Shown one piece after another: positions 25,945 to 31,861 of a stretch of DNA of 64,000 nt; positions within the stretch are counted from its first letter, which is position 1; every line of letters begins with the position of its first letter. The position numbers and the translations under genes are program-made. The stretch lies in the NCBI RefSeq assembly GCF_017052655.1, contig NZ_JAFIDC010000001.1:868001-932000 (forward strand). The letters run 5' to 3'. Source of the DNA: Acholeplasma equirhinis. GTDB lineage: Bacteria; Bacillota_I; Bacilli_A; Acholeplasmatales; Acholeplasmataceae. The notes under the pieces were generated by a model that was not told the DNA's origin, ran no database searches, and worked only from the letters and a program-made list of their open reading frames with translations.

Positions 25945-28002
25945 TTACTTTTTATATTGTTCGACTATTTTTGGAATAATTTGAGCAGGTACTTCATCAT
26001 AACGAATGAATTCACGTTCAAATCTACCAGAACCTTGGGTCATTGCTTTTAGATCAATTGAATATGAAACAACCTCAGCTTCAGGTGCTTCAGCAGTAAT
26101 AATTGTGTAACCATCTTGTTGGTCCATACCTAGGATACGTCCACGGCGTTTGTTCATATCCCCCATGACATCTCCAACATAAGCTTCTTTTACTTTAATT
26201 GTTAATTTAAGAATCGGTTCTAAAATCGTTGGTTGAACTTTTTCTAATGCTGCTTTCCATGCAAGATCAGCAGCGAGTACGAATGAAATTTCATTACTAT
26301 CAACATCATGATAAGAACCATCAAATAAGGTTGCTTTAACCTTAATAACAGGGAACCCTGCTAAAGGACCTTTCTCAAAAGATTTTAATAAACCTTTTTC
26401 AACTGCTGGGAAATAACCTTTAGGAACTGCACCACCAACAACTTCAGATCCAAACTCAAAATCTTGTTCAGTTGGTTCAAATCTAATATAAACATGACCA
26501 AATTGGCCTGCTCCACCAGATTGTTTTTTATGTTTACCTTCACCTTCACCTTTACGTTTAATGGTTTCTCTGTAAACGATCTTTTGATCCTCATAATCGA
26601 TACCAACTTTATACATGTTTTTCATTCTTTCAACAATATATCCGATATGAGATAAACCATATCCACCAATTAAAAGTTGGCCTGTTTCTTTATTTCTTTG
26701 GATATCAAAAGTAGGATCTTCAATGTTTAACTTAGTTAAAGCCATTGAAATTTTATCTTCGTCTTTTTCATTATGTGGAATAATTGCCTTATAGATGACA
26801 GGTGTTGGCATTGGTACTTTATCAAATACAATTCGATTTTTAGGATCAGAAATTGTATCATCTGTTCTAAATTGTTCAACTTTAGTTAAGACAACAATAT
26901 CACCGGCATTGGCTTTTTCAACTGGAATTTGATCTTTACCAAGTAAAGTCATCAAACCATTGATTTTAATCACAGAGTCACTGCCAGAATGATAAACTTC
27001 ATCGCCATTCTTTAAAGTACCTGAATTGATTTTGATAAATGAAAGTGTGCCAATGAATGGGTCAACCATGACTTTAAAAATGAACCCACTAAATGGTGCT
27101 TCACTTACTGTTTTAATTGATACTTTTTGTGAGGTTTGAAGATTCGTAGCTTCTAATTCTTTTAATTCATCTGGTGATGGTGAAAAGTCAATTAACATCT
27201 TAAGCATGGTTTCCATACCAATATTCTTAAGTGAAGATCCGACTAATACTGGTGTTAATTCACCATTAATAATTGAATTATGAAGTGCACCTTTCACTTC
27301 ATCAAGTGAAATTTCTTCACCACCTAAATATTTATCTAGTAATTCTTCTGAGGTTTCAGCAACAGATTCCATGATCATTTCACGAAGTGCATTCACTTTA
27401 GGCATTTTTTCTTCCCAAATTTCAGCATCGACGCATTTTTCACCATCATAGATTCTTGCTTTCATTTCGACAACGTTAACGAATCCTTCAAAATCTTCTT
27501 TTCGTCCAATTGGATAAGTAAATGGAACTGCACGTTTACCTAATTTTTGGCGAATATCTTCAAGTAAGTTTTCGTAGTTAATATTTTCTTTATCCATCTT
27601 ATTGATGAATAATACTGCTGGAATGTGGTGTTTTCTAATTTCAGCCCATACCATTTCAGTACCTACTTCAACCCCTTTGGTTGCATCAATTAAAATGACT
27701 GCACCTTTAACAACTTCGAGTGCATGATAGAGCTCACCGATGAGTTCATCGTTACCAGGCACATCTAAGAAGTTAAGTTTGCAGTCATTGAATTCTACAG
27801 GTATTAAAGATGTTTGCATAGAAGATCCCTTAGCCTGTTCTTCAGATAAAAAATCAGACTTGGTATTCTTCTTTTCGACTTCTCCTTTTTTACTAATTAC
27901 CCCCGAAACATAGAGTAGACTTTCGACAAGTGTAGTTTTACCACTACCTTGGTGTCCGAGAAGTGCGATGTTTCGAAGGGCATCCGTTCTATAGTCCTTC
28001 AT
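25945..28002 (-). CDS. EF-G-like translational GTPase
   Basis: The 685-residue product has the P-loop GHQGSGKT, DVPGNDEL in place of DxPGH, NKMD, and the EF-G domains II-V (GGAGQFGHVYIRFEPTEQDFEF, then GRILGMDQQDGYTIITAEAPEAEVVSY). The switch I region reads KGSSMQTS rather than the RGITI sequence of true EF-G, and DxPGH has Asn for His. Hence it is an EF-G2-type paralogue rather than the translocase itself. An AAGGAGG site precedes the start. The function of such paralogues is not settled. Confidence 0.85.
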   Translation of the reverse strand: MKDYRTDALRNIALLGHQGSGKTTLVESLLYVSGVISKKGEVEKKNTKSDFLSEEQAKGSSMQTSLIPVEFNDCKLNFLDVPGNDELIGELYHALEVVKGAVILIDATKGVEVGTEMVWAEIRKHHIPAVLFINKMDKENINYENLLEDIRQKLGKRAVPFTYPIGRKEDFEGFVNVVEMKARIYDGEKCVDAEIWEEKMPKVNALREMIMESVAETSEELLDKYLGGEEISLDEVKGALHNSIINGELTPVLVGSSLKNIGMETMLKMLIDFSPSPDELKELEATNLQTSQKVSIKTVSEAPFSGFIFKVMVDPFIGTLSFIKINSGTLKNGDEVYHSGSDSVIKINGLMTLLGKDQIPVEKANAGDIVVLTKVEQFRTDDTISDPKNRIVFDKVPMPTPVIYKAIIPHNEKDEDKISMALTKLNIEDPTFDIQRNKETGQLLIGGYGLSHIGYIVERMKNMYKVGIDYEDQKIVYRETIKRKGEGEGKHKKQSGGAGQFGHVYIRFEPTEQDFEFGSEVVGGAVPKGYFPAVEKGLLKSFEKGPLAGFPVIKVKATLFDGSYHDVDSNEISFVLAADLAWKAALEKVQPTILEPILKLTIKVKEAYVGDVMGDMNKRRGRILGMDQQDGYTIITAEAPEAEVVSYSIDLKAMTQGSGRFEREFIRYDEVPAQIIPKIVEQYKK

Positions 28003-28521: not shown

Positions 28522-29949
28522 TTAATATGCTCTTGCAAAAAGAATTGTTGTAGTTGCAGGGTTACCTGTCACTGGACAAGTCTCTGTAACAAGTGGTTCA
28601 TTGACAATAACACGTGCAGTTGCACCGGTTTCTGCTTTGATTTGAATTTCAGCATCTTGACCAGATACTGACATTTTAATGTAGCCCCCTTGTTTTAAAT
28701 ATGATTTAAATTCATCATATGATTTAGCAGTAAAGGTGTGTGATTCTACATGCTTAACTGCATTTTGATACATTTCTTCATGCATCTTAGCCATCGCTGG
28801 TTCTACAAATTCTAATACATCTTCTACTGCAAGTAATGATTTTTCTCTTGTATGACGGAAGACAACTTGAACATTACCTTGTTCTAGGTCACGTGGGCCA
28901 ACTTCAATACGAAGTGGTACACCTTTCATTTCATACTCAGCAAATTTCCAACCTGGTGACTTCTTAGAATCATCAAGTGAAACTCTGATACCGCGCGCTT
29001 CTAAATCTGCTTTCAATTTATTAGCAGTGGCGGTAACTTCTTCATTTGCTGCAATAGGAATAATTACGACTTGAGTTGGAGCAAGGTATGGTGGTAAGAC
29101 TAAACCTTCATCATCACCATGAACCATAATGACTGCACCGATTAATCTTGTTGATACACCCCATGAAGTTTGGTAAGCAAGTTCCAATTCATTGTTGGTA
29201 TTTGTAAACTTAATGCCAAATGCTTTAGCAAATTCTTGACCAAAATAGTGTGATGTACCTGATTGTAAAGCTTGTCCATCATGCATTAATGCTTCAATTG
29301 AATAAGTTTCAAGAGCACCAGCAAATTTTTCTTTTTCAGTTTTTCTACCTGTAACAAATGGAATTGCTAAAAGCTCTTTACCTAATTTTTCATAGATATC
29401 TAACATTTTTAATGTTTCAGCTTTAGCTTCTTCAGCAGTTGAATGGACTGTATGTCCTTCTTGCCATAAGAATTCTTTACCTCTTAAGAATGGACGTGTT
29501 GTCTTTTCCCAACGAACAACTGAACACCATTGATTGTAAAGTTTTGGTAAATCTCTATGTGATTTAACAATCTTCGCATAGTGTGTACCAAATAGTACTT
29601 CAGATGTTGGTCTAATCAATAATCTTTCAGCAAGATCTTCAACACCGGTTGTTGTAACCATGGCAACTTCAGGTGCGAAACCTTCAACGTGTTCTTTTTC
29701 AATTTTGAATAATGATTCTGGAATTAACATCGGCATGTAAACATTTTGATGTCCAGTTTGTTTGAATTTTTTATCTAAGTAACTTTGAATGTTTTCCCAA
29801 ATTGCATAACCGAGTGGGCGATAAATAATAAAGCCTTTTGCATCTGAATAATCCATTAATTCTGCTTTTAAACAAAGGTCTGTATACCATTGGGAGAAAT
29901 CAACGTCGCGAGATGTAATGCTTTCAACTAATTTCTTGTCTTTACTCAT
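28522..29949 (-). CDS. proS: Prolyl-tRNA synthetase (archaeal/eukaryote-like type)
   Basis: The 475-residue class II synthetase has RPTSEVLFGTHYAKIV (motif 2 region), FLRGKEFLWQEGHTVHST and SWGVSTRLIGAVIMVHGDDEGLVLPP (motif 3 region), an anticodon-binding domain and a C-terminal domain ending LFARAY. It lacks the editing insertion of the bacterial long form, so it is the short archaeal/eukaryote-like ProRS also found in several Firmicutes. It overlaps cvfB by 8 bases. Confidence 0.95.
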   Translation of the reverse strand: MSKDKKLVESITSRDVDFSQWYTDLCLKAELMDYSDAKGFIIYRPLGYAIWENIQSYLDKKFKQTGHQNVYMPMLIPESLFKIEKEHVEGFAPEVAMVTTTGVEDLAERLLIRPTSEVLFGTHYAKIVKSHRDLPKLYNQWCSVVRWEKTTRPFLRGKEFLWQEGHTVHSTAEEAKAETLKMLDIYEKLGKELLAIPFVTGRKTEKEKFAGALETYSIEALMHDGQALQSGTSHYFGQEFAKAFGIKFTNTNNELELAYQTSWGVSTRLIGAVIMVHGDDEGLVLPPYLAPTQVVIIPIAANEEVTATANKLKADLEARGIRVSLDDSKKSPGWKFAEYEMKGVPLRIEVGPRDLEQGNVQVVFRHTREKSLLAVEDVLEFVEPAMAKMHEEMYQNAVKHVESHTFTAKSYDEFKSYLKQGGYIKMSVSGQDAEIQIKAETGATARVIVNEPLVTETCPVTGNPATTTILFARAY

Positions 29950-30793
29950 TTTCTTTCACCAAATATGTCTTTCCGTCTTTAAAATTAATTTTGCGTTTTT
30001 TATATAATAAGCCAAGTGCACGTTTAAATGCTTTTCTAGATAAACCAAAAGTTTCTACAACGAGTTCACTTTCAGTATCAGCAGTATAAGGCATAACCCC
30101 ACCATGTGATTCTAAATATTCTAAAATCATATTCGAATCATCTAAACGCACTTCTTCTTTAAATTTACTTAAACTACCTTCATAACCTTGTTTAGTTTCA
30201 TAAGTTACTTTAACAGAAACTGGTTCCCCTAAGCGATATGAATGTCTTGTGTTTGATTTTTTAACTAAAATAATGTTACCTGGCGCAGTTAGTATAAAGT
30301 ATCCAATATTACCAATACCTTGCACAAAACCTTCAATTTCTTCACCAATTTCAAGGTTGCCTAATACCACACGGAATTCTTGTGGCGGAACAAGTCTTGC
30401 TGTCATTCTAGTTTTAATTTTTAAGTCAACATAAACTTTATCACCAACTTGTGGCCATAAAGATTCATCTTTAGGTAAATCATCCTTAGATAAAAGTACA
30501 TCTTTTGAAATACCTAAATCAAGAAACACACCTAAATTAGGGCTAACTGAAACAACCTCTAACTCACCGGGGTCTCCAACAGTGATTTTTGGTCTGCTTA
30601 ATGTTGCTGCAAGTCTACCTTTCGCATCATAGTATAAAAAAGCCTCAACTAAGCTGCCTTTCTTTAATTCTTCGCGTCCGGATTCATTGACATGAAGAAA
30701 GACTTCTTCACCTTTCTCATCCTTTAAACTGTATGCGATATCTGTTTTACGATCAACTTTTAAGGTATTGATCTTACCAATCATTAATGCCAT
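29942..30793 (-). CDS. cvfB: CvfB/YitL S1-domain RNA-binding protein
   Basis: The product (283 residues) has repeated S1-like domains in its first two thirds (EVFLHVNESGREELKKGSLVEAFLYYD and LGVFLDLGISKDVLLSKDDLP) and a C-terminal winged-helix (YTADTESELVVETFGLSRKAFKRALGLLYKKRKI). CvfB of Staphylococcus binds RNA and affects virulence gene expression; the general role is unclear. ATG 30793 follows AGGTGATTAAA. It is co-transcribed with proS, whose start it overlaps. Confidence 0.88.
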   Translation of the reverse strand: MALMIGKINTLKVDRKTDIAYSLKDEKGEEVFLHVNESGREELKKGSLVEAFLYYDAKGRLAATLSRPKITVGDPGELEVVSVSPNLGVFLDLGISKDVLLSKDDLPKDESLWPQVGDKVYVDLKIKTRMTARLVPPQEFRVVLGNLEIGEEIEGFVQGIGNIGYFILTAPGNIILVKKSNTRHSYRLGEPVSVKVTYETKQGYEGSLSKFKEEVRLDDSNMILEYLESHGGVMPYTADTESELVVETFGLSRKAFKRALGLLYKKRKINFKDGKTYLVKENE

Positions 30794-30822
30794 TTTAATC
30801 ACCTAACTTATTATAACATAAT

Positions 30823-30845: not shown

Positions 30846-31577
30846 TTAGTTTTCAAGATAATCAATATATTTTTCGTAAGAATCAAGTAAAAGTGTGTAA
30901 ATGTAGTTTACAAATGGTGAGATATCCTTCTCTACTTTGAAGGTGTCTAAATGTTGTAAATAAAGATCTTTTTGATCAACAGGAATTGAGAATGGCATAT
31001 ACCCATCAAAGATTAGAATGTAATTTAAAACGAGTCTTGCAAGTCGTCCATTACCTTCTAAGAATGGATATATTTTAAAGATCGTTGCATGTGCAAATGC
31101 ACCTTTTTGAAGTGCAGTACCTTTAAAATGTTCAAGGTCATAAAAGAATTTAGCCATTCGATCGTAAACTTTTACATAATCTGGTGGTTGATGCATTGAA
31201 CCAGGTAATTGAATATTTACTTTTCTGTAATGACCTCCAACAAAAATACCTTCAACTAACATTTCATGTAAGTCTTTTAATATTTCTTCGTCAAGTCTTC
31301 TTCTTGAAACACACAGTTTAAACACATGTGAGAATGCGTTTAGATAATTTAACGCTTCTTTTTGTTCACGTTCAGGCAGAGATGTCACAATTACTTTCTT
31401 TTCTAAGAGATTAGAACAATCTTCAAAAGATAAAGCATTTTTCCCGTCAATTGTAATGGATTCATAGACAAACTTTTTAACAAATTCGTTTAGTAAACGA
31501 TTAAACTTTTCTTCGCCTACTGATTCACGCAATTCATTAAAATGTAATCTATCTACTTCCAAGAGATCATGATTCAT
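30846..31577 (-). CDS. Fic-domain protein with Tyr replacing the catalytic His
   Basis: Fic proteins transfer AMP or other groups to target proteins. The 243-residue product has the Fic core with IYPFLEGNGRLAR (residues 169-181). The expected motif is HPFxEGNGRxxR; here codon 170 is TAT (Tyr), not His. The upstream SITIDGKN (40-47) resembles the inhibitory helix motif S/TxxxE-G-N with Asp for Glu. Phosphate-binding Gly, Asn and Arg residues are retained. ATG 31577 follows AAAGGGGC; the upstream ATG overlaps a TATAAT box. Catalysis is doubtful, but nucleotide binding is plausible. Confidence 0.88.
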   Translation of the reverse strand: MNHDLLEVDRLHFNELRESVGEEKFNRLLNEFVKKFVYESITIDGKNALSFEDCSNLLEKKVIVTSLPEREQKEALNYLNAFSHVFKLCVSRRRLDEEILKDLHEMLVEGIFVGGHYRKVNIQLPGSMHQPPDYVKVYDRMAKFFYDLEHFKGTALQKGAFAHATIFKIYPFLEGNGRLARLVLNYILIFDGYMPFSIPVDQKDLYLQHLDTFKVEKDISPFVNYIYTLLLDSYEKYIDYLEN

Positions 31578-31618
31578 TGTTATCGCCCCTTTTGACTTCA
31601 TTATAGCAAACTTTTTGT

Positions 31619-31648
31619 AAAAAAAAGAGGTTTACGAATAAACCTCTT
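31619..31648 (-). terminator. Terminator of the cold-shock gene
   Basis: Minus-strand AAGAGGTTTA/TAAACCTCTT, a perfect 10-bp stem with a 4-base loop, followed by a run of Ts. Confidence 0.9.
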
Positions 31649-31663
31649 ATTTCAATTAGCGAA

Positions 31664-31861
31664 TTAAACTTTTAATACGCTTGCAGCTTGATCGCCACGG
31701 TCGCTTGATTTGATTTCAAATTCAACCGCATCGCCTTCTGCTAATGATTTGTAGCCATCAGCTTTGATTGCTGAATAGTGAACAAATACATCTTTACCGT
31801 TTTCAGCAGTGATAAAGCCGTAGCCTTTACCTGCGTCGAACCATTTAACAGTACCCTTCAT
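31664..31861 (-). CDS. cspA: Cold-shock protein (CspA family)
   Basis: The 65-residue product has the RNA-binding motifs KGYGFI (RNP1) and VFVHYSAI (RNP2) of cold-shock domain RNA chaperones. It starts [14 protein letters not shown] leader of about 65 bases separates it from a near-consensus promoter, and the AAGGAG site is 11 bases from the ATG. Such leaders often respond to temperature, though no specific thermosensor structure is evident to me. Confidence 0.96.

What the first reader, a model, noticed from the sequence alone, without database searches (positions are those of the whole stretch)
30846..31577. Fic protein with HPF changed to YPF
The codon at residue 170 is TAT where the catalytic His is invariant, while EGNGRxxR is intact. 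Fic proteins without the His may be pseudoenzymes or use other chemistry, such as the phosphocholine or phosphotransfer variants that still keep His. One base change would restore His, so it could also be recent inactivation.
Basis: seen in the sequence. Interest (0 to 1): 0.5.

Follow-up and report, generated by a model that had tools for sequence, protein, structure and literature searches.

The report
Genus-wide Fic protein lacking catalytic histidine
In the wall-less bacteria of the genus Acholeplasma, a long-conserved protein of the Fic enzyme family has had its key catalytic histidine exchanged for a tyrosine while the rest of its active site has been kept, so it looks like a stable, inherited variant rather than an error, but what it does is untested.

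Summary
It is not an error or a recent inactivation. Seven of eight held Acholeplasma genomes have the gene, all with Tyr: six intact copies (the other five 70-81% identical to the window's) and one frame-broken. The six form one clade (100/98), so His was lost once, on the genus stem. The gene sits beside cvfB in 18 of 20 regions examined, including a second family, and is under purifying selection. The rest of the FIC motif is intact in 6 of 6 Tyr proteins but in 8 of 23 His-bearing relatives; the full inhibitory motif in 5 of 6 against 0 of 23. Published Fic mutants without this His mostly lose activity, and FICD H363A holds AMPylated substrate tightly. The likeliest reading is a conserved nucleotide- or substrate-binding pseudo-AMPylase; a Tyr-assisted reaction such as AMP removal stays open. 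His-less Fic/Doc groups are in print, so this is a new variant of a known kind.

The parts
30846..31577 (-). Fic protein, 243 aa, Tyr at residue 170 in place of His (251 aa if the upstream ATG at 31601 is used)
   Evidence: an AAGGGG ribosome-binding-like stretch precedes the ATG at 31577 (my reading)
31035..31070 (-). FIC loop codons 170-181, YPFLEGNGRLAR; invariant in the 6 intact genus copies
31158..31238 (-). target-binding flap region, residues 114-140; 22 of 27 residues invariant in the genus
   Evidence: called the flap from its place in the alignment with FICD, the term being from the Fic literature
31443..31460 (-). inhibitory-helix motif, residues 40-45, SITIDG here (SITIEG in the 5 other intact genus copies), aligned with the TVAIEG of FICD
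29942..30802 (-). downstream neighbour cvfB (S1 domains plus CvfB winged helix), 43 bases after fic
28522..29949 (-). proS, proline--tRNA ligase, overlaps cvfB by 8 bases; same conserved block
31664..31861 (-). upstream neighbour, cold-shock protein, 86 bases before fic
31625..31648 (-). terminator-like hairpin between csp and fic, so fic may start its own transcript
   Evidence: consensus match only

Best explanation
This is a chromosomal, vertically inherited FICD-like (class II) Fic protein. In the ancestor of Acholeplasma its catalytic His became Tyr. Shown by sequence: Tyr is present in every genus copy found, arose once on the tree, and is kept with the complete remaining FIC motif, most of the flap and an acidic residue at the inhibitory position. 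Inferred: ordinary AMP transfer is lost or very weak, because Tyr is a poor base for activating a target hydroxyl (general chemistry, recalled). The protein still binds a nucleotide and/or its old (possibly AMPylated) target through the kept pocket and flap, and acts by binding: a pseudo-AMPylase that senses nucleotide, or sequesters or protects its partner, much as the laboratory mutant FICD H363A holds AMPylated BiP.
For: Tyr in 6 of 6 intact genus copies and in the broken seventh. One clade, 100/98, one change needed, 28 rows. fic dN 0.15-0.25 over 15 pairs, dS 1.44 or more in 11 pairs and not computable in 4. Simple neutral simulation: all six stay Tyr in 161, 28 and 2 of 40,000 runs at mean pairwise distance 1.0, 1.44 and 2.0. 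fic protein identity exceeds that of adjacent cvfB in 12 of 15 pairs. The ten motif/pocket positions tested are all invariant, chance 0.0024 given 135 of 243 invariant columns. Rest of the FIC motif canonical in 6 of 6 against 8 of 23 His relatives; full (S/T)xxxE(G/N) in 5 of 6 against 0 of 23. Literature passages: His is needed for AMPylation and deAMPylation in FICD (PMC8373988) and Fic-1 (PMC13327609), and for deAMPylation in EfFIC (PMC6408439). Doc H66Y, the same exchange, is non-toxic (PMC2686095, PMC10467106). FICD H363A holds BiP-AMP tightly (PMC6826200). BepC's actin phenotype does not need its FIC motif (PMC7842960).
Against: No activity, binding or target has been measured. Strict retention of the Mg- and phosphate-binding residues is also what an active enzyme would show. 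A His to Ala change in IbpA did not abolish AMPylation completely, as reported in PMC4454073. The gene may be dispensable: it is frame-broken in G003 and was not found in G007, though either could be an assembly fault. The window's own copy has Asp in place of the inhibitory Glu. The 6-against-23 comparison is not phylogenetically independent: the Tyr clade is one event. The NG86 dS of fic is mostly higher than that of cvfB (0.81-1.67) and proS (0.77-1.26), so it is saturated and rough; the simulation at 1.0 is the cautious one.
Confidence: 0.5

Rival explanations
1. Tyr170 is catalytic. With an acidic residue at the inhibitory position activating water and Tyr giving a proton to the leaving hydroxyl, the protein would be a dedicated deAMPylase (or carry out another Tyr-assisted phosphoryl reaction). 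Tyr is a poor base but can act as an acid, which would favour removal over transfer.
For: An acidic residue is kept at position 44 in 6 of 6 Tyr proteins against 14 of 23 His relatives, and the full inhibitory motif is seen only in the Tyr clade. Residues 170-181 are invariant. In FICD and EfFIC the His is proposed to be the acid in deAMPylation (PMC8373988, PMC6408439, PMC9905249). Residue 167, one helical turn before Tyr170, is Phe in the whole Tyr clade and Ala or Ser in 23 of 23 relatives, perhaps a local adjustment. His to Ala in IbpA leaves residual AMPylation (as told in PMC4454073).
Against: Removing the His abolishes deAMPylation in three studied Fic systems. Doc H66Y is non-toxic. 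A simulation study found the FICD deAMPylation barrier the same without Glu234 (PMC9905249), which weakens the argument from the kept inhibitory acid. No Tyr-dependent Fic chemistry appeared in the passages and abstracts I saw.
Confidence: 0.3
2. The protein is a degenerating leftover: the His loss removed its function and it is drifting to loss.
For: Frame-broken in G003 although 97.7% identical to intact G002; not found in G007. A His relative, G019, has an internal stop.
Against: Low dN at saturated dS, invariant active loop, and conserved locus in the genus. Drift since the genus ancestor would have scattered the site (28 of 40,000 simulated runs keep Tyr in all six at distance 1.44, 161 at 1.0).
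Confidence: 0.13
3. The scaffold is kept for a role unrelated to nucleotide or the old target, such as a partner of the neighbouring RNA-binding protein or of ProRS.
For: Linkage to cvfB in 18 of 20 regions examined (14 direct, 4 with one ORF between; 2 undecidable), two of them in family f5; proS is seen in 16 of the 18.
Against: Such a role would not need E174, N176, R178 and R181, which are invariant. The linkage also exists with His in other genera, so it does not explain the Tyr.
Confidence: 0.05
4. Sequencing error, strain oddity or mis-called frame.
For: One base separates Tyr from His codons.
Against: The same codon TAT in six genomes, four of them matched to separately named records.
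Confidence: 0.02

Closest known systems
FICD/HYPE and C. elegans Fic-1 (class II Fic AMPylase/deAMPylase)
   Same: Best fold matches (Z about 26-27 over 222-231 residues) and best sequence matches in the PDB; inhibitory motif in the same N-terminal place; flap and loop motif.
   Different: No TPR domain (243 aa in all), bacterial, and the catalytic His (FICD His363) is Tyr.
FICD H363A (laboratory substrate-trapping mutant)
   Same: Catalytic His missing while the nucleotide site and inhibitory acid are kept; binds AMPylated BiP tightly with slow release (PMC6826200, passages).
   Different: Man-made, Ala not Tyr, target known. Trapping is untested here.
Doc H66Y
   Same: The identical His to Tyr exchange in a Fido protein; non-toxic (PMC2686095, PMC10467106; passages).
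   Different: Laboratory mutant of the Doc toxin, not a naturally fixed state.
Doc clade D2 (Qx[F/Y]x[D/E][G/V]NKR)
   Same: Natural clade of 45 sequences with the catalytic His replaced (PMC4454073, section 6).
   Different: Gln not Tyr, Doc-type NKR motif.
Bartonella Bep Fic domains without His; BepC
   Same: About a quarter of 99 Beps lack the His (PMC8401265, abstract passage and section 3.3); [quoted passage not shown]
   Different: Host-translocated effectors with BID domains. In Beps, residues for ATP binding are enriched where the His is present; here they are all kept without it.

Membership tests
Fic/Doc domain family (PF02661) | Profile match over the curated cut-off and Fic fold | tested here: met
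   60.7 bits, cut-off 24; VIA-align Z 26.9 to C. elegans Fic-1
Fic AMP transferase | Catalytic His in HxFx(D/E)GNGRxxR | tested here: not met
   Tyr in 6 of 6 intact genus copies
Fic AMP transferase | Rest of the motif (F, D/E, GNGR, final R) for Mg and phosphate binding | tested here: met
   6 of 6
Fic AMP transferase | AMP transfer activity | not testable with these tools
   needs an enzyme assay
Class II Fic (N-terminal inhibitory helix) | (S/T)xxxE(G/N) before the Fic core | tested here: inconclusive
   5 of 6 genus copies have SITIEG; the window copy has SITIDG
Toxin-antitoxin Fic (class I) | Small antitoxin gene with the inhibitory motif next door | tested here: not met
   neighbours are csp, cvfB and proS, with 86 and 43 bases between fic and its two neighbours; the protein carries its own inhibitory-type motif
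Doc clade D2 | Gln for His with NKR | tested here: not met
   Tyr with NGR

The most novel reading that the evidence does not exclude
Acholeplasma has naturally fixed what biochemists built by mutation: a Fic protein whose His is replaced but whose nucleotide pocket, flap and inhibitory acid are kept. It would work either as a dedicated reader or trap of AMPylated proteins or, with Tyr as the acid, as a one-way deAMPylase.
Probability: 0.25. Interest if true: 0.72.

Novelty: new variant of a known kind. Interest (0 to 1): 0.42.

Why it matters
His-less Fic proteins are easily dismissed as decayed. Here a single His to Tyr event is fixed in a genus while the other active-site motif residues are kept, better than in the relatives that retain His. 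That gives a clean natural test of whether the FIC histidine can be replaced, whether Fic pseudoenzymes bind nucleotide or AMPylated targets, and whether removal of AMP can be separated from its addition. It also warns against annotating these proteins as adenylyltransferases.

Tried and rejected
Error or recent inactivation: rejected. Compensating catalytic His elsewhere: His129 and His163 are present in the Tyr clade, but also in 23 and 21 of 23 His relatives, so they are not specific replacements. Position 78 looked like a second coordinated His to Tyr change, but 2 of 23 His relatives have Leu there; dropped. Mobile or viral origin: no relative in viral contigs by the search for related loci; all matches in plasmids (291 records) and phages (15 records) are under 60% identity. 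Searching genome contigs with the genus alignment gave five loci: four match contigs of genus genomes already counted, and L040 has His. The exact pattern scan of viral contigs gave four hits: L105 and L106 have no Fic context, L103 lies in an 18-residue open frame, and L104 is a real Fic. The structure model cannot settle the Tyr geometry: loop and flap have pLDDT under 50, from a six-row alignment.

Rows dropped: L014 (G019, internal stop) was left out of the tree, so 28 of 29 rows were used, but it is among the 23. Ten orthologue-strength matches (G052, G040, G011, G048, G054, G056, G060, G025, G018, G023) got no locus; G040 and G048 show His in the listing and the other eight were not read. 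G003's broken copy is not among the six Tyr rows. The phylum pattern scans hold 392 genomes drawn from a larger group and do not include G004 and G005; an exact pattern misses variants such as DANGR, and one search's match listing was cut short.

Full report
WHAT IS THERE. The finding's coordinates hold a Fic gene on the minus strand, 31577..30846, 243 aa. Pfam Fic scores 60.7 bits against a cut-off of 24. The loop reads YPFLEGNGRLAR, with Tyr at residue 170. Aligned with human FICD, Tyr170 stands at the His of HPFIDGNGR, and Asp44 (Glu in the other genus copies) at the Glu of TVAIEG; in the FICD papers these are His363 and Glu234 (PMC8373988). The AlphaFold2 model (mean pLDDT 80) matches C. 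elegans Fic-1 and FICD at Z about 26-27.

IT IS A GENUS TRAIT. The window lies in a 1.45 Mb genome with seven other held genomes of its genus. Seven of eight genus genomes have the gene, all with Tyr: six intact (window included) and one, G003, frame-broken although 97.7% identical in DNA to intact G002. In G007 neither fic nor cvfB was found, and only a weak partial proS match. In the 23 orthologues read from other genera the residue is His. The tree puts the six Tyr proteins in one clade, 100/98, with one change. The codon is TAT in all six. In 392 genomes of the phylum the YPFx[DE]GNG pattern occurs in 5, all this gene in this genus, while the HPF pattern occurs in 186.

IT IS OLD, VERTICAL AND CONSTRAINED. 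csp-fic-cvfB-proS is the order in the window and in the genus regions fetched, except that the G004 contig ends after cvfB and G001 shows a 170-aa ORF between fic and cvfB. Of 20 regions fetched, fic sits directly beside cvfB in 14, with one ORF between in 4 (G001, G013, G050, G043), and 2 cannot be judged (fic at a contig end in G031; hidden by an overlapping ORF in the display of G015). Two of the linked regions are of family f5 (neighbour names). Within the genus fic dN is 0.15-0.25, cvfB 0.17-0.32 and proS 0.07-0.19; fic dS is 1.44 or more in 11 of 15 pairs and not computable in 4, mostly higher than for the neighbours, so saturated and rough. 135 of 243 columns are invariant and the second-longest invariant run is exactly 170-181. 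A neutral site would keep Tyr in all six in 28 of 40,000 simulated runs at pairwise distance 1.44 (161 at 1.0, 2 at 2.0). The simulation is simple (HKY, fixed tree) and serves as an order of magnitude.

THE REST OF THE SITE IS UNUSUALLY INTACT. In the Tyr clade xPFxEGNGRxxR holds in 6 of 6, the full inhibitory motif in 5 of 6 and an acidic residue there in 6 of 6. In the 23 His relatives the full FIC motif holds in 8, the full inhibitory motif in 0 and the acidic residue in 14; twelve of them have DANGR. Thus the His was not lost as part of general decay. Clade-specific changes include Phe167, one helical turn before Tyr170 (Ala or Ser in 23 of 23 relatives), and Lys119 and Met128 in the flap. 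These are one lineage's changes, so their link to Tyr170 is a suggestion.

HOW IT MOST LIKELY WORKS. The His is proposed to be the base in AMP transfer and the acid in AMP removal (PMC6408439, PMC8373988, PMC9905249; passages). Its loss abolishes deAMPylation in EfFIC and both reactions in Fic-1 (PMC13327609, passages); for FICD the paper calls it an essential base and reports deAMPylation eradicated. Doc H66Y, the same exchange, is non-toxic (PMC2686095, PMC10467106; passages). Against this, His to Ala in IbpA is reported not to abolish AMPylation completely (PMC4454073). FICD H363A holds AMPylated BiP with slow release (PMC6826200, passages). From these I infer that the Acholeplasma protein transfers little or no AMP and works by binding nucleotide and/or its partner. 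A Tyr-assisted removal of AMP is the main rival; a simulation study that finds Glu234 unimportant for the deAMPylation barrier (PMC9905249) speaks against leaning on the kept acid. No step beyond the sequence facts is shown.

WHAT IS KNOWN. His-less Fido proteins are in print: Doc clade D2 with Gln (PMC4454073, section 6 read) and about a quarter of Beps (PMC8401265, section 3.3 read). BepC's phenotype does not need its FIC motif (PMC7842960, passages). Paper searches: Fic with catalytic histidine, tyrosine and pseudoenzyme, 0 papers; A. laidlawii with 'Fic family protein', 0; three of the four terms Fic protein, Mycoplasma, Acholeplasma, AMPylation, 3 papers, all on FICD by title or abstract; degenerate or inactive Fic, 12 of 12, 15 of 34 and 7 of 7 listed; a broad one, 12 of 92 listed. 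None of the listed titles names this protein or a natural Tyr-for-His clade. The library holds open-licence papers only, and I saw parts of twelve of them.

SIDE RESULTS. The same genome has a second Fic, on contig C2, beside a RelB-type antitoxin gene; its His is Arg. In the genus this second gene occurs in 8 of 8 genomes, Arg in two (G000, G001) and His in six. Only two PF02661 matches were found in the window genome, so no Fic with the catalytic His was detected in it. A viral contig (L104) carries a distant Fic (25% identical over 165 alignment columns) with YPFADGNGR while a Lactococcus plasmid relative (52% identical) has HPFADGNGR: probably a second, independent His to Tyr, though no tree was made.

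Noticed in passing
L002:1342-1965 (G000:C2:4152-4775): Second Fic of the same genome has Arg for the catalytic His (IRPFREGNTR), beside a RelB/DinJ-type antitoxin ORF (L002:1013-1342); Arg in G000 and G001, His in the six other genus genomes.
   Followed up: partly
L104:5518-6288: Viral contig with a different Fic carrying YPFADGNGR and an SxxxEN inhibitory-type motif; a Lactococcus plasmid relative has HPFADGNGR. A search of viral contigs with it returned only the same contig.
   Followed up: partly
L031 / L051 (G003): The Tyr Fic gene is broken by a frame change in this genome although nearly identical to the intact G002 copy.
   Followed up: partly
L012-L028 orthologues in other genera: Twelve of 23 His-bearing orthologues have DANGR instead of (D/E)GNGR, and eight have Lys for the last Arg, so much of the subfamily departs from the AMP-transferase consensus.
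   Followed up: partly
G007: In this genus genome fic and cvfB were not found and proS gave only a weak partial match: the block is absent, strongly diverged or in an assembly gap.
   Followed up: no
window 25945-28002: EF-G-like GTPase (685 aa) in the neighbourhood, matched again near the block in A. granularum and A. laidlawii; its name is my reading of the sequence, no family search run.
   Followed up: no
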